64,000 bases of DNA. Source: Pararhizobium sp. IMCC21322 (GTDB taxonomy: Bacteria > Pseudomonadota > Alphaproteobacteria > Rhizobiales > GCA-2746425). Below are positions 3,804 through 42,338 of the stretch, in pieces. The position numbers and the translations under genes are program-made. The stretch lies in assembly GCF_030758295.1 (NCBI RefSeq), contig NZ_CP132335.1, positions 2,022,412 through 2,086,411 of the forward strand, given 5' to 3'. The first letter of the stretch is position 1; every line of letters begins with the position of its first letter. Under the pieces are notes generated by a model. It was not told the origin of the DNA. It did not search any database and saw only the letters and a list, made by a program, of their open reading frames with translations.

Positions 3804-5657
3804 ATGACGATTAACTTGCAAATGCCTGAAATTACCGAATTGAAGCCACGGATCACCGTGTTCGGCGTGGGTGGAGCCGGTGGTAACGCCGTCAACAACA
3901 TGATCCGAGCCGGTCTGCAAGGTGTGGACTTTGTAGTTGCCAACACCGACTCCCAGGCGCTTTCCATGTCCCATGCTGAACGGGTTGTTCAGATGGGTGT
4001 TGCCGTAACCGAAGGGCTTGGTGCTGGTTCTCAGCCTGAAGTCGGTCGTGCGGCAGCAGAAGAGGTCATGGATGAAATCAATGACCATCTGAACCAGGTT
4101 CATATGGCCTTCATCACGGCTGGCATGGGCGGCGGTACCGGCACTGGTGCTGCACCCGTAGTTGCCCGTGCGGCGCGCGAATCCGGAATTCTGACGGTTG
4201 GTGTCGTAACCAAGCCATTCCATTTTGAAGGCAAGCGGCGCATGGCGCTGGCGGAAGCCGGCATCGAAGAGCTGCAAAAACATGTGGATACGCTGATTGT
4301 CATTCCCAATCAGAATCTGTTCCGCATTGCCAATGAGAAAACCACCTTTGCCGATGCGTTCGGCATGGCCGATCAGGTGCTTTACTCCGGTGTTGCCTGC
4401 ATTACCGATCTGATGGTCAAGGAAGGCCTCATCAATCTTGATTTTGCCGATGTGCGCTCCGTGATGCGCGAAATGGGCAAAGCCATGATGGGAACCGGCG
4501 AAGCGGGCGGCGAAGGCCGTGCGGTTCAGGCGGCAGAAGCCGCGATCGCCAATCCGCTTCTGGATGATGTATCGATGCGCGGTGCCAGAGGTCTGCTGAT
4601 CTCGATCACTGGTGGCAATGATTTGACCCTGTTTGAGGTTGATGAAGCAGCGTCCCGCATCCGCGAGGAAGTTGACGATGATGCAAACATCATTCTGGGT
4701 GCGACTTTTGATGAATCCATGGAAGGCGTCATTCGGGTTTCCGTGGTTGCCACAGGCATTGATTCCATTGCTGAATTAAATGCTGCGCCAGCTGATGTTC
4801 GCATGGCAGAGCTGACCCAGCGCCTTCGCGGTGGAGCAGGTGCTGCTATCACAACATCAAACCAGACTGCCGAAGGGCAACAGCCGCAACTGGCGGCTCC
4901 AGCCCCTCAACAGCCTGAACATGCGCCCGCACAGGCATCAAATGAGCTGGAAGAAGATTTGCGAATTGCACGGCCAGCGCCACAGGCGGCTCAGCCGATG
5001 GCACGTCCTGCAGCATCTGATCCAAATGTGACATTGGCTCCGCTGAGAGCGCCTGCTCCTCAGCATCCGCCACATGACGCCTATGAACAACCACCTCAGG
5101 AAGCCCCGCGCACTGCCGGGTTTGTGCCTGCGGCAGCTCAGGTGCCGGAAAGCACCACGCCGCGGATGCCAAAAGTGGAAGACTTCCCGCAAGTGGCGCA
5201 GCGTCAGATGCGGGCACATGAGGGTGGCGCAGAAGACCGGACCCATGATGGCGATGATCGTCGCCCAATGGGCCTGCTGCGCAGACTGGCAAATGTTGGT
5301 CTGGGACGTAGCGAGGAAGAGCAGGGACATCCCGCTCAACCACAGCAACCGCGTCAGCCACAGGTTCCTGTAGCCCAGCAGCCAGCGGCACCACAACATG
5401 CGCCTGCGCCTCAGCACGCACCAATGCCGCAAGCCGCCCACCCACGTCAGGCGGCACCTGAGCCAATGATGCAACAGTCGGCTCCGCGCCCTGCTGCACC
5501 ACAGCCAGCTGCAGGCCAACTTGATGCACATGGTCGGGCACCTGCACCAAACTACGGTCAGAATCCGGCTCAGAATCATGGCCACAATCCGGCCAATTCA
5601 CCGCAGGAAGATGATCAACTGGAAATTCCAGCCTTTCTGAGACGCCAGGCAAACTGA
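3804..5657 (+). CDS. ftsZ: cell division protein FtsZ
   Basis: Tubulin-like GTPase that forms the Z ring. GGGTGTG at residues 109-115 is the tubulin signature and the GTPase core runs to about residue 320. A long, disordered linker rich in Pro, Gln and Ala occupies roughly residues 330-600, making the protein 617 residues, far longer than the about 380 of E. coli but usual for Hyphomicrobiales. The conserved C-terminal peptide [10 protein letters not shown] binds FtsA and other partners. GAGGG just before the ATG is the ribosome binding site. A strong hairpin follows directly, so the division operon ends here. Confidence 0.97.
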
Positions 5658-5675
5658 TCCTCGATCAATTTGTGT

Positions 5676-5720
5676 AACAATTAACCCCGCTGCGTGAGCA
5701 ACGCAGCGGGGTTAATTGTT
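5676..5720 (+). terminator. terminator hairpin after ftsZ
   Basis: A perfect 20-bp stem (5676-5695 with 5701-5720) around a five-base loop GAGCA. The lower stem is AT-rich and the upper stem GC-rich, so transcripts in the plus direction end in UUAAUUGUUUGG. It starts 18 bases after the ftsZ stop. Confidence 0.85.
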
Positions 5721-6050
5721 TGGTTTACCACCAAAAATTCGAAAAAGCGGCGAATGTTACGTAATATTACAAACATGACACATTAGGTTAAAAAGCGTGA
5801 TTTTCGTTTCCGATGGCAAAACCCTATTGTCTGTGGCGAAAGCAAGGCAAATTGACTCGCGCTTACGATCTGCCAGATGGCGATAACATGTACCATTTGG
5901 TTTGATCACACGATGTCATGGTCTTGAAATCGAGGAAGTCAACAGAATCCATCAGGATCGGGGCTTTTGAGATCAGGTGACAGGGATGCGGGCCAGGTAC
6001 CGCATTTTAGATGCACGTTGGAGTTTACGTGCAGGTTTATTGGGGCTGAT
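5721..6050 (+). promoter_or_regulatory. non-coding leader before lpxC
   Basis: About 330 bases without a convincing gene between the ftsZ terminator and lpxC. The only structure I see is the 10-bp perfect palindrome GTAATATTAC at 5761-5770, framed by ATGTT at 5754-5758 and AACAT at 5772-5776, which looks like an operator. The frame of lpxC is open back to a TTG at 5967, but this upstream part has no LpxC similarity. Confidence 0.35.
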
Positions 6051-7073
6051 ATGACGATGTTTGATGTGAAGACAACCGCGCGGAATATAACTGCCGGAAA
6101 GACGTCCACCAGGACGGCACGTCAGACCACTTTGAAGGACAGTATTGGCATTGCGGGCATCGGTGTTCATTCCGGCAAGCCATCCAGTATTGTTTTGCAT
6201 CCGGCCAAGAGTGGCAGCGGAATTACATTCCTGCGCAAGGCTGACGGAAATGCCATCGACCAACTGATTCCTGCTCATGTAAACAATGTTGGCGACACAC
6301 GCCTTTGCACCGTTTTGGGCAATCCCGAAGAATTATATGTTGCGACTGTTGAGCACCTTCTGGCTGCGCTGCGCGGCATGAATGTTGATAATGTGCTTAT
6401 AGAGATTGATGCCGCTGAAGTGCCCGTGATGGATGGCAGTTCCCGTCCGTTTGTCGAAGCCATTCGTGAAGTGGGAACAATCAGACAATCTGCACCACGG
6501 CGCTATATTCGTGTGTTGCGGGAAGTAAAAGCAGCTCATGGCAAAGCACATGCTGTGTTGCGCCCACATGATGGGACACGTTTTGACGTGGAAATCGACT
6601 TTGAATCAGAAGCGATTGGTCGCCAACGTTTTATCGCAGAATTGACACCTGAAGTTTTTGCCAAAGATATCTCCCGTGCCCGGACATTCGGCTTTCTGGC
6701 CGAAGCAAAGCAGTTGCGGGCCATGGGCTTGGCTCAGGGCTCTTCCTTCGATAATTCGGTTGTGATTGATGATGATGATCGCGTCATGAACGAAGAAGGC
6801 CTGCGTTATGAAGACGAGTTTGTGCGTCACAAGCTGTTGGATGCCATCGGGGATCTCGCTTTGGCTGGTTCACAAATTCTGGGCGAGTACAAATCCATTT
6901 GCGGCGGCCACAAGCTCAATGCGATGATTTTGGAAGCTCTGTTCGCGGATTCGAAAAACTGGTGCTTTGAAGATGCAGCTCCCGTTGAAGATCAGCCTAT
7001 GTTTTCAACGCCTGTTGGAGCACCTGTTGGCCTCGAAGCTGCCAGTCAACCGGTCGCCGCTGCCAAGGCGTAA
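6051..7073 (+). CDS. lpxC: UDP-3-O-acyl-N-acetylglucosamine deacetylase
   Basis: Zinc enzyme for the committed step of lipid A synthesis. The core shows TLKDSIGIAGIGVHSG, the zinc ligand segment VEHLLAALRGMNVDN, and HKLLDAIGDLALAG with the second His and the Asp ligand, all in order. ATG 6051 gives 340 residues; another ATG lies at 6057, and the open frame reaches a TTG at 5967. The weak ribosome binding site leaves the exact start uncertain. The position between ftsZ and bamD is the usual one. Confidence 0.95.
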   Translation: MTMFDVKTTARNITAGKTSTRTARQTTLKDSIGIAGIGVHSGKPSSIVLHPAKSGSGITFLRKADGNAIDQLIPAHVNNVGDTRLCTVLGNPEELYVATVEHLLAALRGMNVDNVLIEIDAAEVPVMDGSSRPFVEAIREVGTIRQSAPRRYIRVLREVKAAHGKAHAVLRPHDGTRFDVEIDFESEAIGRQRFIAELTPEVFAKDISRARTFGFLAEAKQLRAMGLAQGSSFDNSVVIDDDDRVMNEEGLRYEDEFVRHKLLDAIGDLALAGSQILGEYKSICGGHKLNAMILEALFADSKNWCFEDAAPVEDQPMFSTPVGAPVGLEAASQPVAAAKA

Positions 7074-7120
7074 GTTTGGGCCAAAATTTGGGACCTAAGT
7101 TCAGGATCTGAGAAGGCGGA

Positions 7121-7135
7121 TTAAGCGGAGCTTAA
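7121..7135 (+). promoter_or_regulatory. CtrA-type box TTAA-N7-TTAA between lpxC and bamD
   Basis: TTAA, GCGGAGC, TTAA matches the full CtrA consensus spacing and is also a perfect palindrome (TTAAGC, GGA, GCTTAA). It lies about 195 bases before the bamD start. CtrA is the cell-cycle master regulator of alphaproteobacteria. The match is exact for the two tetramers, but such short sites occur by chance; the base after the second half is G, not the preferred C. Confidence 0.35.
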
Positions 7136-7329
7136 GGGCTTGTAATATATAGCTTGCTGCTGTTGGACACCGTTTTGCCATTCTTGCTTGTCAGAACATG
7201 GTTCGGTTGCGGTGGATGAAACTGATCACACATGAAATCCGATTGCCTTATTGAGGTGGTTTCATAGGAAGTTTTCCGGTATAAACCGCTGGTGAACAAT
7301 TTAAGTCGCGCTTACAAGACAGTCTGATT

Positions 7330-33357: not shown

Positions 33358-33705
33358 GTCTTCTCGGGAGACCCGCAGGACCCAGATTCAGGAACGCCTG
33401 AACATCGCTGGTAAACCAGCGTCCTCTTGGCATATCAGCAAGATATGAGCGCATTGCAGAATGTTGGTTTCAAGCAGGCGGTCACGTGTTGGGACGAGGC
33501 CGTTTTGACCAGATGTTTGGGTGAAATAGATTTTGCCGGAACACTGTGTCTCAAACTCCGGCTTGAGACTGCATGACCGTTTCCTCAAAAGCCTGAACTG
33601 ATATCTCGCGCAGTGTAAGTTCGCTTCCCGCAAGAAACGGGTGGTCACTTTAAGATCGGTCGCGGTACTGGAACGCAGCAACCCATGCCTCTGGAGCCGT
33701 TCGAC
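33358..33705 (+). other. gap without recognisable gene
   Basis: About 350 bases between the glcB terminator and the transporter gene. Short open frames are present on the minus strand but none shows a family signature or ribosome binding site. I see no repeat or clear operator. Confidence 0.5.
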
Positions 33706-34650
33706 ATGACCAACGCCACATCGCCCACACTGGATGTGAAATCGACAAGCTTGTTGTTAATGCTGGCAGCGATTTGGGGTGGATCGTTTTTCTTCAATGA
33801 AATAGCGCTGCGTGAAGTGCCACCGCTCACCATTACCCTCCACAGAGTCATCTGGGCCGTGCCAATCCTGGCCGTGATTGTGTATCTGAAGCGGGTTGCC
33901 GTTCCCCGTTCCAAAAGTGTTTGGGGCGCTTATCTTGTCATGGGCGCACTTAATAATGCGGTTCCATTTTCGTTGATCGTGTGGGGGCAGACACAGATTG
34001 AAAGCGGATTGGCCTCTATTCTGAACGGGACCACAGCCATGTTTGCGGCGGTGGCCGCAGGGTTGCTGCTGAAGGATGAGCCTTTGACGGCAAAGAAAAT
34101 ACTTGGTGCGGTGCTGGGTCTTGCCGGTGTGGCTTTTATCATGGGCCCCAATGCGCTGACTGAATTCAATCTCACCAATCTGGCTCAACTCGCCATTCTC
34201 GGCGCAACACTGTCTTACGCATTCGCCAGTGTTTGGGGAAAAGCAGCACTGGCTGGCCATCCGCCGCTAATGAACGCACTCGGAATGTTGATCGGCAGCA
34301 CCGTGTTGATGATCCCGATTGTGCTTGTTGTCGACGGCCCGCCAAACCTTGCACTGTCCGCAAGCGTCTGGGGTGCACTGCTGGGCCTGGCAACTTTGTC
34401 GACGGCGATGGCCTATGTCCTCTATTTCGCCATTCTCGCACGGGCCGGAGCCGCCAATTTGATGCTGGTCACATTGCTCGTTCCCCCCTTCGCAATTGCC
34501 CTTGGAGTGCTGTTTCTGGGGGAGCGAATGGGACCAGAGGCGTGGATCGGCTTTGCCATCATCGGCCTGGGCTTCGCAGTGACGGACGGACGGTTGTTGT
34601 CGTTTTTCATTCGAAAGTTCTCTGCGGACGCGGGCAGGGGGCAATCTTAG
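33706..34650 (+). CDS. DMT superfamily transporter (EamA type)
   Basis: Inner-membrane permease of 314 residues with about ten hydrophobic segments arranged as two EamA repeats (AIWGGSFFFNEIALREVPP in the first; GATLSYAFASVWGKAALAG in the second). Substrate is unknown; relatives export amino acids or metabolites. ATG 33706 with GGAG nine bases upstream is preferred to ATG 33685. A second, only distantly similar EamA gene lies 4.9 kb downstream on the other side of the defence module. Confidence 0.87.
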   Translation: MTNATSPTLDVKSTSLLLMLAAIWGGSFFFNEIALREVPPLTITLHRVIWAVPILAVIVYLKRVAVPRSKSVWGAYLVMGALNNAVPFSLIVWGQTQIESGLASILNGTTAMFAAVAAGLLLKDEPLTAKKILGAVLGLAGVAFIMGPNALTEFNLTNLAQLAILGATLSYAFASVWGKAALAGHPPLMNALGMLIGSTVLMIPIVLVVDGPPNLALSASVWGALLGLATLSTAMAYVLYFAILARAGAANLMLVTLLVPPFAIALGVLFLGERMGPEAWIGFAIIGLGFAVTDGRLLSFFIRKFSADAGRGQS

Positions 34651-34916: not shown

Positions 34917-35906
34917 ATGGCACGCGGTGAACTCATGAAGAAACTCTTAGCCAGCTTTGGCCGAGAGGATGAATTTAGGGCCGTGGCCGAACAAATCATC
35001 GGTGAGGAGGAGAAAAAGAACAACAGAGTTCTCGCAGATTCCCTTCGTAAGTCCCTTGATGCGCCTCTTGCCGGTAGGAAGCCAAAGCGCCATTCGGCTT
35101 TAGCTCCTCTTCTGCCATTTCCTGACGCAGCGGGTGATTTTGTAGAGCGCATCGAACCAGAAAAATCCAAGTCAGACATCGTATTGAGCGCACCCAATGT
35201 TCGAGTTTTATTAGGCCTTCAAAAAGAATATCGTAAATCTGATGAGATACGTCGACACGGTTTACCCGTTAGATCCAAATTGCTGTTTTGCGGCCCTCCG
35301 GGTAACGGCAAGACACTGGCAGCGGAAGTCTTTGCTGCGGAACTGGGATTGGTGCTCTATATTGTAAAGCTTGATCGATTGATTTCGTCATATCTGGGAG
35401 AGACCGCTAGTAATCTTCGTAAGGTTTTTGATATGGCACGCACGCAACCCTGTGTAATTTTCTTTGATGAATTTGATGCACTTGCAAGATCGCGTTCAGA
35501 CGAGGGTGAACACAATGAGCTCAGACGCGTAGTCAATAGCCTTTTGGTATTCATTGATAGACTGCAACCGAAAGGTTTTCTAATAGCGGCCACCAATCAC
35601 GACAAAGCACTGGACCCAGCGGTATGGAGACGATTTGACGAGGTTATCTGGTTCGAAAAACCTGAACTGCCCATGGTCCGCCGTTATTTGATAATGAAAT
35701 TCAAGAATGTGAAAACTGAATTCAACCCTGCAGACTGGTCTCGAAAATTGGAAGGATTTTCATATGCTGAGATCGAGCGTGTTTGCCTACAATCGATAAA
35801 GTCTATGGTGATTGAAAGTCGTTCAAAGGTACGCGAGCGTGATTTCAACCGCGCCTTAACAGATGAAGTAAGGCGCAGATCCAAAAACCAAGCCCTTCAG
35901 TCGTAA
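34917..35906 (+). CDS. ietA: AAA ATPase of an IetAS-like defence pair
   Basis: Protein of 329 residues with one AAA module: Walker A GPPGNGKT at 126-133, Walker B IFFDEFDA at 181-188, sensor 1 AATNHD at 224-229 and arginines in VWRRFDEV near 238. The N-terminal 110 residues are a helical, charged domain. The next gene, 15 bases on, encodes a subtilisin-like protease; an AAA ATPase followed by a subtilase is the arrangement of the IetAS antiviral system. Codon use is more AT-rich than in the neighbours, as in transferred genes. The family assignment is from domain architecture only, so the symbol is provisional. Confidence 0.75.
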   Translation: MARGELMKKLLASFGREDEFRAVAEQIIGEEEKKNNRVLADSLRKSLDAPLAGRKPKRHSALAPLLPFPDAAGDFVERIEPEKSKSDIVLSAPNVRVLLGLQKEYRKSDEIRRHGLPVRSKLLFCGPPGNGKTLAAEVFAAELGLVLYIVKLDRLISSYLGETASNLRKVFDMARTQPCVIFFDEFDALARSRSDEGEHNELRRVVNSLLVFIDRLQPKGFLIAATNHDKALDPAVWRRFDEVIWFEKPELPMVRRYLIMKFKNVKTEFNPADWSRKLEGFSYAEIERVCLQSIKSMVIESRSKVRERDFNRALTDEVRRRSKNQALQS

Positions 35907-37577
35907 CGGAAACATTTCAACATGGCGCGTTATGATCACTTGAAACTCGTGCGTCTTCCTGAGCGCTTGGAGCGCAGGAAAACTGGCGGTGGTGGACCAC
36001 CCCCAGCTAGAGATAGAGCAACTCACCCGGGGAAAGTTCGAGAGCAACTTGATCAGGCTATTGAGGTTCAACGGCAACGCCGCAAACCGGAAATGGTTGA
36101 CCCGTCATTGATCTTGCGCGTCTCAATGACCGGCGCGTCGATGGAAGAAGAATGGGCAAAGCTTGGACTCACAGTTGTATCAAGTGACATGGATAAATCT
36201 CTCATCTTGTTTTCCTCAAGAGAGGAAATGGACCAGTTAATTGCTCGAATTGATGCTTATTCAGGTGAAATCCCAAAGGGGCAGAAGAACCCTTCGTATC
36301 AAGGGTTCATCCATGCAATCGATTCCATCGGTGTGGTTCAACCGAAGGATCGTGTTGGCCCGCGATTTCAGGAAGATGGTTTTGCGGAGATTGCTGATTT
36401 CGTTGCTGACGAAATGTACTGGGTCGATATAGAGGTTTGGCAAATTGGAAGGCGCGAAGCACGGGAAAGGAAACTCAACCAGATTGAAGACTATATAATA
36501 GCCAAGAGTGGCGAAGTTACAGACCGGTACGTAGGCCCTTCCTTAACCGTTGCAAGAGCTCATATCTCGGGCGCGTTACTTGTATCGCTTTTGAAAATCG
36601 AAGAAATTGCCACAATTGATTTGCCGCCACAACCTGACTTCGAAACGGAAGAAGCACTTGAGATGGAACTGGGTGGTATGCCCGTTCCGAACTCATTGCC
36701 GGATGACGCGCCAATTATTGGTATTATCGATAGCGGTATAAATGATCATCCAATGTTGGCCGATATTTTAGTCGGATCAATTGCTGTCCCGGCAACACTA
36801 GGAACCGCAGACGATTTTGGGCACGGAACCAGGGTTGGATCAATTGCTGCCTTCGGGGATATAAGAGCGCAAATCAACGCTGGCACAATGAACCCTGGCG
36901 CACGATTGTGTTCTGCAAAGGTAGTCAATGGAAACGGTCAATTTGACAATCGTCGCCTTGTTCCAACGCAGATGCGCGATGCTATCACTGGCCTGAATGA
37001 ACAATTTGATTGCCGAATATTTGTCATATCATTGGGGGACAGAAAACTTCCATACAAAGGGGGTAAAGTTGGAATATGGGCAGCAACTCTCGATGAGCTC
37101 GCGCGCGAACTTGATGTTGTTATCTTTGTATCTTCTGGCAATCGAAGGCCACGGAGCGGCAACCGTGTTGAGGAGGGAATCACCGATTATCCGCTTTATT
37201 TGATGGAAGACTCAAACCGTTTCTTTGAACCGGCAGGTGCCATGAATGTAATGACAGTTGGTTCCATTTCTCACGGCGAAGGTATCGATGGAAACTTAGC
37301 TGCATTTCCGAATGTCAGAGCTATTACACGCGAAGGAGAGCCTTCGCCATTTTCCCGAATTGGGCCAGGTATGGCAGGATCAATCAAACCAGATCTCGTG
37401 GAGGTCGGCGGAACAATGGTTTACGACGCCACGGTTATGCGGTTGAGGCAGGGTGATGATCTACCAAGTGCGGGTGTACTGGCACTTCATCACGCTTATC
37501 TAGGTTCAGGACCCATTAAAATTTGGGATTCCCATCGGCAGTGATTTGTGATTCCTTCCAATCGAGGAGGATCACAG

Positions 37578-38338
37578 ATGAGCACTTTGTTTTGGCTTTC
37601 CGAAGAGCAACTTGAGCGGATGAAACCACATTTTCCACTTTCGCACGGCATCCCGCGTGTCGATGACCGTCGTGTACTGAGTGGCATCATCCACGTTATC
37701 AGAAACGGCCTTCGATGGTGCGATGCGCCAGTTGATTATGGGCCGCATAAGACGCTGTACAATCGGTTTGTGCGGTGGAGCGGACTGGGCGTTTTTGATC
37801 GTATATTCAGCAGTTTGGTGGCCGAGGAAGGTCCGCCAGATACATTGATCATTGATGCCACACACCTGAAGGCTCATCGCACTGCGGCAAGCCTTCAAAA
37901 AAAGGGGTTCTTCCCCGTCGCATCGGTCGCACCAAAGGCGGGTTAAATTCCAAGCTTCACGCTGTCACCGATGGCAAGGGACGGCCCATCATGATGGCCT
38001 TGAGCGAAGGGCAAATGTCGGATCATCTGGGTGCCAAGCTGCTGTACCCAGCCATGCCAAGCGCCCAAACGCTGATCGGGGACAAAGGATACGATAGCGA
38101 CGAGTTCCGCGCAGCATTGAAAGCAAAAGGCATCAAGCCCTGCATTCCGCCAAGATCAGGCAGGAATAATCCGGCCACATATTCAAAGGCATTGTACAAA
38201 CAGCGCAATCTGATCGAACGCATGTTTGGCAAACTCAAGGACTGGCGCCGTATCGCGACCCGCTACGACCGATGCGCCCATACCTACTTCTCAGCAATCT
38301 GCATCGCCGCAACAGTGATCTTCTGGATCAATCAATGA
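37578..38338 (+). CDS. IS427-type transposase, made by -1 frameshift
   Basis: DDE transposase in two frames. The first frame (37578-37946) starts MSTLFWLSEEQLERMKPHFP and contains the first catalytic Asp in LIIDATHLKAHRTA. The second frame is open past 37904 to 38338 and contains the second Asp in LIGDKGYDSDEF and the Glu in RNLIERMFGKLKDW. They meet at A-AAA-AAG (37898-37904), a classic -1 slippery heptamer; after the slip the protein reads KKGVLPRRIGRTKGGLNS, as in uninterrupted relatives. The second frame also has an ATG at 37991 but no ribosome binding site there. Confidence 0.9.
37898..37904 (+). promoter_or_regulatory. programmed -1 frameshift site A-AAA-AAG
   Basis: Slippery heptamer in the transposase gene, in the correct phase for tRNA slippage from frame one (AAA AAG) into the frame that carries the remaining catalytic residues. 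GC-rich sequence follows, but I did not find a strong downstream hairpin. Confidence 0.75.
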
Positions 38339-39103
38339 GTCCTGACCCTAGATAGGTTGGTGACCTCTGGATCCGGAACATCCTACTCGACACCGCTAGC
38401 TGCATATAGCGCTTCCCAAATATTAACACGGTTACCCCAAGCTTCTGCAAATTTGGTTAGAGCATTGATGGTGGGTTCGGCGAGTATTCCTGAGGCTGCC
38501 GCCATACGATTGTCTGGATTGACGGGAGACGCTGCGCAAAAAATTTGTGGCCACGGACTACCCAATCTTGAGCGCGCTGCATTTTCAGATGATGATCGAG
38601 TTGTACTATACGCTGAAGACAGTTTACAAATTGATCATTTCGCGATTTACAAGGTACCCATTCCAGCGCCATTTAAGACTGGTGAAGGACGCCGGACTAT
38701 CAAGGTGACGATGGCATATGATCCGCCAGTTCGTCATACTCGCGCAGATTATTTGGATACAGGGATGAGTTTCCGTCTTATACGTGGCTGTCCCGACGAT
38801 GTGATTAGAGATCATTTTCGTAGAAGAGCCCAAGTCGAAGGAAAGCGGCCCGAATTAGCAGGAAGATTTCAATGTAATTTGGAGCCAGGCCCGAATGCGC
38901 GTGAAAAGGGAACAGTCCAGACGGCAACGGTGACGTTTCATCGTGAAGTGGAACGTTATGGTGATGAGTATCACCTGGTGGTCCGCTGCGAGTCAGGCTG
39001 GTTCGGCGATGCGGGTAATCAAGCGTATTCTATTGTTGTCGAAATTGCGCAGGAAGCGGAAGTGCGCTTGTACGAACGACTACGTGCACGTGTTTCGGTA
39101 TAA

Positions 39104-39512: not shown

Positions 39513-40445
39513 TCACGTCGGTGCGGTATGCCCTTTGCCTGCCGCTCGCCTTGCAATGACTCCGCCACAAATAATCGCCGCCAAACCAATCAGCGAGAGC
39601 GCTGTCAAAACGTCACCGAACAGCAGCGCAGCAAGCACGACGCCGAAACCTGTTCCCCAATAGCCGATCTGGCTGAAGACGACGGGACCGGCAACTTTCT
39701 GAAGCTGAAAATTCAGAACGTAGGAAATGGCCGATACGGCAATCATGAGGGCGATCCAGCCCCATAGAACCGGCAGGGAGAATTCCCAAGTGCGAGGGTC
39801 TTCGAACAGGGGCGCCATGCATAAGACCAGCACGCTGGATGTCAGAAGGGTGGCACCGGCAAATGCCAGTGCCGAAGTGCCTGCTGGCCAAAATTTTGAC
39901 CTGATGACATTCCCGATGGCCGCAAATGCGGGGATCAGAAGGCCGAGTGCGACCCATAATGTTGCATCAGTATCTATCTGCGTGAATTGCTGTTGAACCA
40001 AAATCAACATGCCGGTCAGGCCGATTAATATCCCCAGGAACCGTCGCAGATACATCCGCTCGATGCCCAGACCCGCCGCGAAAGACATGGTGAGAATGGG
40101 CGAGAGCGCGTAGACGGTGGACGTATAGGCCGGGCCGACGCGGTCCACGACGGCGTATGACAGCACGGTTGGTGCCGCAAAGCTGATGATGCCCAGCCCA
40201 AGATAGAGCAATATGTGGGCGCGACTGGTCGGAATGCGCTCCCCCGACCTCAGAATAAGGCCAAAGACCAGTAGGCCGGCACCAAGATTCCCCACAAATG
40301 CCAATTGGAACGGCAGAGCCCCCGCAGAAAGGGCAGCTTTTGCGACCATGATTTTTGTCGCAAACACGAAACTGCTGCCGACCAGAAGCAACATTGGAGA
40401 TCTGGCCATAAGCGTCAGACGGTTTTTCATTTTGGCATAATCCAT
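39513..40445 (-). CDS. DMT superfamily transporter (EamA type)
   Basis: Permease of 310 residues with about ten membrane segments in two EamA repeats (PTVLSYAVVDRVGPAYTSTV in the first half; YVLNFQLQKVAGPVVFSQIGYW in the second). The frame begins at ATG 40445; ATG 40430 is a possible alternative and would place the operator palindromes wholly in the leader. It is divergent from a marR gene, with two matching palindromes between them, so it is probably the target of that regulator. Substrate unknown, possibly a toxic compound or metabolite export. Confidence 0.85.
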   Translation of the reverse strand: MDYAKMKNRLTLMARSPMLLLVGSSFVFATKIMVAKAALSAGALPFQLAFVGNLGAGLLVFGLILRSGERIPTSRAHILLYLGLGIISFAAPTVLSYAVVDRVGPAYTSTVYALSPILTMSFAAGLGIERMYLRRFLGILIGLTGMLILVQQQFTQIDTDATLWVALGLLIPAFAAIGNVIRSKFWPAGTSALAFAGATLLTSSVLVLCMAPLFEDPRTWEFSLPVLWGWIALMIAVSAISYVLNFQLQKVAGPVVFSQIGYWGTGFGVVLAALLFGDVLTALSLIGLAAIICGGVIARRAAGKGHTAPT

Positions 40446-41026: not shown

Positions 41027-41144
41027 TGCGGGTCGCCTCCAAATGCTTTGGCCTATTTGAACGTCAAGCAATCTGCTATGCCTGCGGTTCAAACGCATTC
41101 ATATGTCTTCGCAAGTATCGTCACCAGCCTATCCCGGAGTTGTT

Positions 41145-42338
41145 ATGTGGTTTCGCCTTTTGAACGTTATCTGCATCGTGTTTTTGCTTTTGTCTCCAGC
41201 CAGAGCTGACATCAAAGACCAGATTGCTGCCCTTGCACCGTCCGGGCTGGTGCTGGTGCTGGATGAAAAAGGCGAGGCACTGGTGGCTCAAAATGCTGAT
41301 CAGCCATTTGTCCCGGCCTCCGTTGCCAAGATCGCCACGGCATGGCTGGCGATGGAAGTGCTCGGCAGGGATCACCGGTTTCAGACGCAATTTTACCTCG
41401 ACAAAAAACGGGTGCTTTACGTGCGCGGTGGGGGAGACCCCTTTTTGATTTCTGAGGAGCTGGCTCTGCTTGCACCAAAACTTCTTGAAGCGACCAATAC
41501 GGACCCGTTCAGTGGCATTGTCCTGGACACCAGCTACTACCCCGATGATCTGCGCATTCCCGGTATTGAAGACACTGACGAAGCGTATGATGCCTTGAAT
41601 TCGGCGCTCGCGGTGAATTTCAATACCATCTATGCGGTCCGTAGGGGCAAGACCGTCCATTCGGCGGAAAAGCAGACGCCGATCACGCCTTTGGCCATCA
41701 GCCAGTTTCGCGCAAGGGGGCCAAATGGCAAGGGGCGCATCAGCCTGGCGCAACAGGACCGGCATGTCAGCGCGCTTTATGCAGGAGAGCTTCTCGCGGC
41801 GTTTATCCGCAAGGCAGGCGGAGAGGTTGAGGGAGACATATCGATTGGCGCGCTGCCTTCAAGGCAAAAGCCCATCTATGTGCACCGGCAATCGCGCGCG
41901 CTGCCGGAAATTCTGGCTGCCATGCTGCTTGGTTCGAATAATTATATCACCAATCAGGTTTTCCTGGAGATTGGCGCTTACCGTCTGGGTGGTCCGGTCA
42001 GTCTGAAGAAATCGTTGAAGGTCACTCAGGACATTCTTGCCAAACACAAATTAGCCGACGCAATTTATCTGGTCGAGGGATCCGGCATCAGCCGCGAAAA
42101 CCAATTCACGGCGGCAGGTCTTGCAAAAATGCTGCATCTGTTTGCGCCACATGCAAATCTGCTTCGAAAGACAAAGGCAGGCTCGCGATACAAGACTGGC
42201 ACGCTCTCCGATGTAAGTACTTTGGCAGGCTACGCCAAAACATCGGAACATGGTCTGGTGCGGTTTGTCATTTCACTGGGCGGTGGCAAGGGCAAGTTGA
42301 GATTTCGGCTGTTGCGCGCCATCGAACGCGGGTTGTGA
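41145..42338 (+). CDS. dacB: D-alanyl-D-alanine carboxypeptidase/endopeptidase, PBP4 (S13) family
   Basis: Periplasmic penicillin-binding protein of 397 residues. ATG 41145 gives a signal peptide WFRLLNVICIVFLLLSPARA; an upstream ATG at 41103 would only add residues before it. The active-site motifs are SVAK (SxxK, near residue 59), SNN in LLGSNNYITNQ and KTG in YKTGTLSDVSTLAGY, in the S13 order with a large insertion between the first and second motif. It trims or cleaves peptidoglycan cross-links. It does not sit with other wall genes. Confidence 0.9.
   Translation: MWFRLLNVICIVFLLLSPARADIKDQIAALAPSGLVLVLDEKGEALVAQNADQPFVPASVAKIATAWLAMEVLGRDHRFQTQFYLDKKRVLYVRGGGDPFLISEELALLAPKLLEATNTDPFSGIVLDTSYYPDDLRIPGIEDTDEAYDALNSALAVNFNTIYAVRRGKTVHSAEKQTPITPLAISQFRARGPNGKGRISLAQQDRHVSALYAGELLAAFIRKAGGEVEGDISIGALPSRQKPIYVHRQSRALPEILAAMLLGSNNYITNQVFLEIGAYRLGGPVSLKKSLKVTQDILAKHKLADAIYLVEGSGISRENQFTAAGLAKMLHLFAPHANLLRKTKAGSRYKTGTLSDVSTLAGYAKTSEHGLVRFVISLGGGKGKLRFRLLRAIERGL

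What the first reader, a model, noticed from the sequence alone, without database searches (positions are those of the whole stretch)
34917..39103. IetAS-like antiviral pair, its protease split by an insertion sequence
An AAA ATPase gene and a subtilisin-like protease gene stand 15 bases apart in an AT-rich accessory segment between two unrelated transporter genes. This architecture matches the IetAS class of predicted antiviral systems (AAA ATPase plus S8 protease). The protease gene is interrupted between the Asp270/His301 motifs and the Ser538 motif, so the defence pair is presumably off while the ATPase gene remains intact. A defence system silenced by an IS is of interest for the cost of such systems and for phage sensitivity.
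Basis: partly seen in the sequence, partly recalled or inferred. Interest (0 to 1): 0.75.

Follow-up and report, generated by a model that had tools for sequence, protein, structure and literature searches.

The report
Toxin-antitoxin defence pair with broken toxin
A known bacterial two-gene module (a potentially self-poisoning protease and the ATPase that restrains it, also listed as an anti-virus system) has had its protease gene cut in two by a recently jumped piece of DNA, and relatives suggest that the protease is the half that usually breaks first.

Summary
ietA (34917-35906) is intact. ietS is split after codon 527 by an 846-bp IS5-family element (37503-38348, TA target duplication), between the Asp270/His301/Asn407 residues and Ser538. 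Two further copies of the IS in the genome are identical over the element, so the insertion is young. Profiles, gene order, 15-bp spacing and conserved catalytic residues place the pair in the IetAS family.

Experiments in print on pairs of this type show a toxin-antitoxin module: the S8 protease is the toxin, the AAA ATPase the antitoxin, and only loss of the ATPase is lethal. An IS in the protease is the tolerated hit.

I tested that in nature. Among 77 genome loci found by IetA, 63 pairs are intact, 9 have only ietS broken, 3 have both broken, 2 are undetermined; none has only ietA broken. With plasmids and IetS-first genomes: 20 ietS-only events against 0-2 doubtful ietA-only ones (length-null p 0.0009-0.02; strict set 11:0, p 0.02). 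Remnants look mostly young, so lasting selection on lone ietA is not shown. Defence context is supported in relatives. New member of a known kind; interest modest.

The parts
34917..35906 (+). ietA: AAA ATPase (antitoxin-type partner), intact, 329 aa; Walker A GPPGNGKT, Walker B, sensor-1 Asn and WRRFD all present
   Evidence: PADLOC IetA 1.4e-82; PF00004; motif columns over 73 rows
35907..35921 (+). 15-base gap between ietA stop and ietS start
35922..37502 (+). ietS 5' part, 527 codons: N-terminal region plus catalytic Asp270 (36729-36731), His301 (36822-36824) and Asn407; runs 13 codons into the IS and stops (ORF 35922-37544)
37501..37502 (.). TA target duplication, left copy
37503..38348 (+). 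846-bp IS5-family insertion sequence; one of three copies identical over the element in the genome
37548..37946 (+). IS transposase, first ORF (DUF4096)
37991..38338 (+). IS transposase, second ORF (DDE domain), other frame
38349..38350 (.). TA target duplication, right copy
38351..39103 (+). ietS 3' part with the catalytic Ser538 motif (38381-38383) and the C-terminal domain
33685..34650 (+). EamA-family transporter, conserved left neighbour (also in G003)
39513..40445 (-). second EamA-family transporter; no DNA match at this spot in G003
41103..42338 (+). D-alanyl-D-alanine-carboxypeptidase-like gene (name from reading the protein, no profile run), right border of the variable spot, also in G003

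Best explanation
The locus is a chromosomal IetAS module in a variable gene spot. SHOWN: a recent transposition of an IS5-family element split ietS inside its subtilase domain, leaving ietA intact. INFERRED from homologues: IetS is an S8 protease that is toxic to its own cell when free, and IetA, a classical AAA ATPase, restrains or remodels it until a trigger (loss of the element, phage) upsets the balance. With Asp/His/Asn on one fragment and Ser on another, no active protease is expected, so module and defence output are off and the lone ATPase is harmless. Insertions of this polarity survive because the opposite hit (ietA broken, ietS active) would be lethal.
For: Identity. Insertion and its youth. 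In 18 aligned intact IetS, Asp270, His301, Asn407 and Ser538 are invariant; in 73 IetA including the window, the Walker, sensor-1 and WRRFD columns are invariant apart from one free position in Walker A and conservative changes at two positions of Walker B. IetS model of a relative (pLDDT 72.9): subtilase plus C-terminal domain, best match KP-43 (1wmd), Z 25.1, rmsd 3.2, 372 aligned, model 262-759; the insertion point lies inside it, in a stretch of low confidence. Toxin-antitoxin behaviour in print: SGI1 S026/S025 in E. coli, 100- to 1000-fold lower transformation by the protease, not seen when the ATPase is present (PMC5006074, section 4 read); JCVI-syn3A: antitoxin knockout lethal, toxin knockout without noticeable effect (PMC6755753, passages); mycoplasma pair functional (PMC8562856, abstract and passages). 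Natural asymmetry: 20 ietS-only loss events against 0-2 doubtful ietA-only (tests). Order: plasmid CP140869 carries an ietA frameshift on top of the ietS frameshift of the lineage of L042; six related records have that two-piece ietS with one-piece ietA.
Against: Toxicity and defence were not tested for this pair; window IetA/IetS are far below NCBIfam's equivalog cut-offs (231.5 of 510; 82.5 and 29.1 of 900), as are the three intact pairs tested. PSK was not seen for SGI1 S026/S025 under its own promoter. The asymmetry is modest once length is allowed for, p 0.02 at worst. ietS remnants mostly have dN/dS not far above intact genes, so most breaks are young or some are sequencing errors in drafts.
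Confidence: 0.8

Rival explanations
1. Pure anti-phage module: IetAS serves defence only, and the IS was kept because defence was costly or phage pressure absent.
For: PADLOC profiles. In a sample of 13 loci (every 4th of the 51 of 77 with enough flank) 8 have at least one nearest neighbour ORF matching PADLOC at 1e-10 or better, one of them weak and two by methyltransferases alone. Four hand-picked plasmid loci lie beside Septu, short Argonaute with TIR, a type III-A retron RT and a Dsr1-like SIR2 protein (7 of 8 proteins tried matched).
Against: Published tests of such pairs show toxin-antitoxin behaviour. Defence and toxin-antitoxin are not exclusive. The window's own near neighbours are transporters and housekeeping-type genes.
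Confidence: 0.3
2. Neutral decay: ietS is simply the larger target (779 against 329 codons) and the IS hit it by chance.
For: Length alone predicts 70% of single breaks in ietS. The five IS insertions into ietS with ietA intact (window, L095, L110, L154, NGR234), taken alone, give p 0.17. dN/dS of ietA shows nothing special.
Against: 20 of 20, 20 of 21 or 20 of 22 events give p 0.0009, 0.006 or 0.022; the strict 11 of 11 gives 0.021.
Confidence: 0.3
3. ietA is kept after ietS loss because it has its own use (immunity to incoming ietAS plasmids, or another partner).
For: ietA intact in 9 ietS-broken genome loci, with dN/dS 0.022-0.096 against a control median of 0.049 (n 41). In one locus (L081) the ietS remnant is relaxed (0.387) while ietA is not (0.043).
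Against: Eight of the nine loci had a remnant to measure (not L110). Besides L081, six give 0.030-0.152, three of them above the upper quartile of intact ietS (quartiles 0.053 and 0.094, 29 control pairs), and L111 is saturated; so most breaks look too young to tell. L081 is an uncultured bin.
Confidence: 0.1
4. The two ietS pieces still work together as a split protease, or the IS excises.
For: Both pieces are open frames without other lesions.
Against: The break lies inside the subtilase domain; the second piece lacks Asp and His. Excision was not and could not be looked for here.
Confidence: 0.03

Closest known systems
IetAS (PADLOC/NCBIfam name; pTiC58 stability module, Yamamoto et al. 2009, not held, known here from citations in PMC5006074, PMC6755753, PMC8562856)
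   Same: AAA ATPase gene followed by S8 protease gene, same profiles and same catalytic residues
   Different: here on a chromosome, and ietS is interrupted by an IS; below NCBIfam's equivalog cut-offs, like the three intact pairs tested
sgiAT (S026-S025) of Salmonella Genomic Island 1 (PMC5006074)
   Same: AAA antitoxin plus subtilisin-like toxin; that paper aligns it with IetA/IetS of pTiC58
   Different: not compared directly with the window here; on a mobilizable island and functional
JCVI-syn / Mycoplasma TA132/133 (PMC6755753, PMC8562856)
   Same: AAA ATPase upstream of an S8 peptidase; loss of the protease gene tolerated, loss of the ATPase gene lethal
   Different: distant host; relation to the window pair is by described domains, not tested here by sequence
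ietAS loci with natural IS lesions in ietS: NGR234 plasmid (IS21 ISRsp2), Phenylobacterium zucineum plasmid (IS21), Rhodovulum visakhapatnamense (IS66), Novosphingobium bin (IS21)
   Same: ietA intact, ietS interrupted or cut short by an IS
   Different: other IS families and other positions in ietS

Membership tests
IetAS | ATPase matches IetA profile | tested here: met
   PDLC02196 1.4e-82, residues 17-321
IetAS | protease matches IetS profile over its length | tested here: met
   PDLC02198 in two consecutive pieces, profile 1-521 and 528-779 of 795; pieces searched apart
IetAS | genes adjacent, ietA first, same strand | tested here: met
   15-bp gap; 63 of 77 related loci keep both genes intact side by side
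IetAS | complete S8 catalytic residues in one protein | tested here: not met
   present in the DNA but divided between two reading frames by the IS: it is a broken member
IetAS | NCBIfam IteA/IteS equivalog cut-offs | tested here: not met
   231.5 of 510, 82.5 and 29.1 of 900; intact pairs L073, L116 and L181 also miss, so the cut-off marks a narrower group
AAA ATPase/subtilase toxin-antitoxin module | free protease toxic, ATPase neutralises | not testable with these tools
   shown for other pairs in PMC5006074, PMC6755753, PMC8562856 only
AAA ATPase/subtilase toxin-antitoxin module | toxin lost before antitoxin in nature | tested here: met
   20 ietS-only against 0-2 doubtful ietA-only events; modest after length correction
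anti-phage defence system | defence neighbourhood | tested here: inconclusive
   8 of 13 sampled related loci; the window's two flanking genes tested are EamA transporters
anti-phage defence system | protects against phage | not testable with these tools
   no phage assay possible
IS5 family insertion sequence | IS5-type transposase, terminal repeats, short duplication, multiple copies | tested here: met

The most novel reading that the evidence does not exclude
IetAS loci pass through a regular 'antitoxin-only' stage: ietS is knocked out first, often by IS elements, and the ietA left behind is kept for a while as an anti-addiction gene that lets the cell ignore the killing of incoming ietAS plasmids. 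Chromosomal remnants such as this one would then shape which plasmids can settle.
Probability: 0.1. Interest if true: 0.55.

Novelty: new member of a known kind. Interest (0 to 1): 0.32.

Why it matters
It is a clean natural knock-out of the toxin half of a module counted both as toxin-antitoxin and as phage defence. Annotation that counts an intact ietA, or half-matching ietS profiles, as a working defence system would be wrong here and in about one in eight related loci (9 of the 72 genome loci with intact ietA and determinable ietS). The recurrent ietS-first loss is what the toxin-antitoxin model predicts, and it gives that model a test by comparative genomics.

Tried and rejected
First genome-contig scan with the window IetS fragment as single query found nothing. 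Rejected: that IetA is FtsH or another housekeeping AAA protein (own-genome search gave one other weak match, 33% identity over 187 residues in a 644-aa frame; L148 and L149, which match only residues 123-314 at 32%, were dropped from the census). Rejected as evidence: L136, whose ietA break is at an N-run assembly gap. G212, whose ietA frame begins near residue 60, was treated as divergence, not a lesion; counting it as a second ietA-only case gives 20 of 22, p 0.022. L157 (CP140920) has an ietA frameshift near codon 19 while its sister record CP140882 matches from residue 1; it is counted as the one ietA-only candidate. Plasmid rows below about 49% identity were left out of the count, among them H68 (3 pieces) and H70 (2 pieces), which may be further broken ietS; their ietA was not examined, nor were 9 unlisted rows. 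Selection test on lone ietA: mostly uninformative because remnants look young. Structure: IetA and IetS models are of middling confidence (pLDDT 73.0 and 72.9). PDB sequence searches returned subtilisin-type proteases (58 of 58 rows shown) and, among the 60 of 264 rows shown for IetA, CDC48/p97-type and related AAA ATPases. Foldseek and VIA-align rows cover the subtilase and C-terminal domain; the N-terminal 250 residues were barely tested. Paper searches for a mechanism of IetAS or a survey of its decay showed none in their listings; most listed papers were not opened. The founding papers (Yamamoto 2009; Gao 2020) are not held and are cited from recall or through other papers. In PMC8765062, PMC10286901 and PMC10194956 I saw passages only.
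Full report
What is there. The window holds ietA (34917-35906) and, 15 bases on, ietS, which is open for 527 codons (35922-37502), then interrupted by an 846-bp element (37503-38348), then open again to 39103. The element has imperfect inverted ends, a TA duplication, and two ORFs that are halves of an IS5-family transposase. Two more copies in the same genome are identical over the element; the only difference in the compared stretch lies outside it, in the flank. The three targets read CTAG, CTAG and CTAA. So the insertion is recent. Asp270, His301 and Asn407 are on the first piece and Ser538 on the second; all four are invariant in 18 intact IetS proteins.

Setting. The locus lies between two EamA-family transporter genes. 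A same-genus genome, G003, keeps the left EamA gene and the carboxypeptidase-like gene at the right, but has other genes between them, one with a Schlafen/AlbA_2 domain. None of the other four held genomes of the genus has an IetS match. The host belongs to the order that also holds the genomes of loci L013 and L014, whose genes are identical to those of named Pseudovibrio and Rhodomicrobium records; I did not name it further.

What it is. Both genes match the IetAS profiles of PADLOC. They miss NCBIfam's equivalog cut-offs, but so do the intact pairs L073 and L116 and a distant pair L181; L073 and L181 match the PADLOC profiles over their length. Relatives are common on rhizobial plasmids: 84 plasmid records match the ietS fragment, 43 of them typed conjugative.

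What such pairs do. PMC5006074 (section 4 read) shows for SGI1 S026/S025 that the subtilisin-like protein lowers transformation of E. coli 100- to 1000-fold and that the AAA protein cancels this; the operon under its own promoter gave no post-segregational killing. PMC6755753 (passages read) shows for a mycoplasma pair that the antitoxin knock-out is lethal and the toxin knock-out has no noticeable effect. PMC8562856 (abstract and passages read) confirms that pair in E. coli and in mycoplasmas. These papers trace the type to IetA/IetS of pTiC58. That IetAS was tested as an anti-phage system (Gao et al. 2020) is recalled; the paper is not held. PMC10286901 lists ietAS in a table of systems tied to phage proteins (passage seen).

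Census, genome loci found by IetA. One search returned 79 loci; 2 other AAA proteins were dropped. Of 77: 63 both intact; 9 ietA intact and ietS broken (L072, L081, L089, L095, L110, L111, L113, L132, L137); 3 both broken (L141, L144, L145); 2 undetermined (L078 contig end; L136 assembly gap and contig end). Two of the nine are IS insertions (L095 IS21, L110 IS66); in L095 no later piece of ietS was found in the stretch held. One is a deletion of about 480 codons (L111). L132 reaches a contig end 126 bases after the homology stops, so an IS there is only suspected. L113 is a late lesion near the C-terminus. The patterns used lie in the first 37 residues of IetA, so breaks further on in ietA would be seen, as they were in L141, L144 and L145.

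Census, plasmids. One search listed 60 of 69 records. Of the 37 of the close clade (about 49% identity or more, plus three partial rows), by my reading of the rows, 22 have full-length one-piece ietS and 15 do not. The 22 all have ietA among the 60 of 408 rows, one of them (CP140920, L157) with a frameshift near codon 19. I fetched 14 regions from 13 plasmids (L041-L043, L150-L160). ietS-only events: the R. ruizarguesonis/leguminosarum frameshift lineage (6 records, one inspected as L042), L150, L151, L152, L153, L154 (IS21, and a shift near codon 15-20) and NGR234. In NGR234 ietS is cut near residue 283: the 5' part runs into one ISRsp2 copy (L156), the 3' part starts beside a second copy with identical istA-istB (L155), and the two places are about 350 kb apart one way and 185 kb the other on the 536-kb circle. 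Both broken: L158, L159, L160. In L160 the ietA frameshift sits on top of the lineage's ietS frameshift, so ietS broke first there.

Census, genomes found by IetS. From (397 genomes; only its 8 matches with E below 1e-100 were used, the 22 weaker ones were not; 385; 398; both at 1e-40) come 23 different genomes. ietS is broken in 5: the window, G187 (an element with an IS3-type HTH_Tnp_1 protein at a contig end; no ietA at E 1e-30, so not counted), G825, G912 and G796, the last three draft genomes with ietA intact. Of the 18 with intact ietS, 17 have a full-length ietA frame; G212's begins near residue 60.

Weighing it. ietS-only events: 9 + 7 + 4 = 20; ietA-only: none clear, one candidate (L157), two if G212 is counted. 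With a null of 0.703 for ietS by length, p is 0.0009, 0.006 or 0.022. A strict set (IS, large deletion, several lesions, or the same lesion in several records: window, L095, L110, L111, L072, L137, L042 lineage, L151, L153, L154, NGR234) is 11 of 11, p 0.021. The p values treat events as independent, and the strict set was chosen after seeing the data. dN/dS of ietA in the 9 ietS-broken loci (0.022-0.096) is like controls (median 0.049, n 41). Of 8 ietS remnants measured, six give 0.030-0.152 (three above the upper control quartile of 0.094), L081 is clearly relaxed at 0.387, and L111 is saturated. So toxin-first loss is supported, and lasting use of lone ietA is not shown.

Defence context. 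Every fourth of the 51 related loci with enough flank (13 loci) was checked with its nearest ORF of 150 aa or more on each side: 8 of 13 have a PADLOC match at 1e-10 or better (L079, L089, L093 weak, L099 and L115 by methyltransferases only, L108, L126, L139). Four plasmid loci picked by eye gave Septu, short Argonaute plus TIR, a retron RT and a Dsr1-like protein; these were chosen for their annotation and are no sample.

Mechanism, shown and inferred. Shown here: the insertion, its youth, intact ietA motifs, a predicted subtilase fold in an intact relative with the break point inside it. Inferred: free IetS cuts host proteins, IetA holds it in check by ATP-driven binding or remodelling, and phage or loss of the element frees it. 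The target of IetS is unknown to me and to the papers seen.

Verdict. An ordinary but well-resolved case: a broken member of a known module, in which the break falls where the toxin-antitoxin model says it may.

Noticed in passing
L155 and L156 (plasmid pNGR234a, NC_000914): ietS of NGR234 is cut near residue 283 and its halves lie far apart, each beside a copy of ISRsp2 with identical istA-istB, as if recombination between IS copies had rearranged the plasmid.
   Followed up: partly
L144 1506-2982: In a Nitrobacter bin ietA residues 4-109 are followed almost directly by ietS from residue 157, a deletion taking the end of ietA and the start of ietS.
   Followed up: no
L160 (CP140869) 5001-7177: ietA frameshift stacked on the ietS frameshift of six related plasmids, an ordered two-step decay.
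   Followed up: partly
L194 4369-7961 (G003): Same genomic spot in a same-genus genome holds other cargo, including a Schlafen/AlbA_2 protein and two genes without Pfam match at 0.001.
   Followed up: partly
L068, L069 (IMG/VR contigs): Intact ietA-ietS pairs on contigs filed as viral; whether these are phages or plasmids was not checked.
   Followed up: no
L151, L152 (Bradyrhizobium plasmids): Nearly the same neighbourhood with VapBC and PrlF-YhaV modules beside ietAS, yet different lesions in ietS on the two plasmids.
   Followed up: no
window 37503-38348 and G000:C1 2427176, 4437607: Three copies of the IS identical over the element, all at CTAR targets; further copies about 70% identical in the same genome.
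   Followed up: partly
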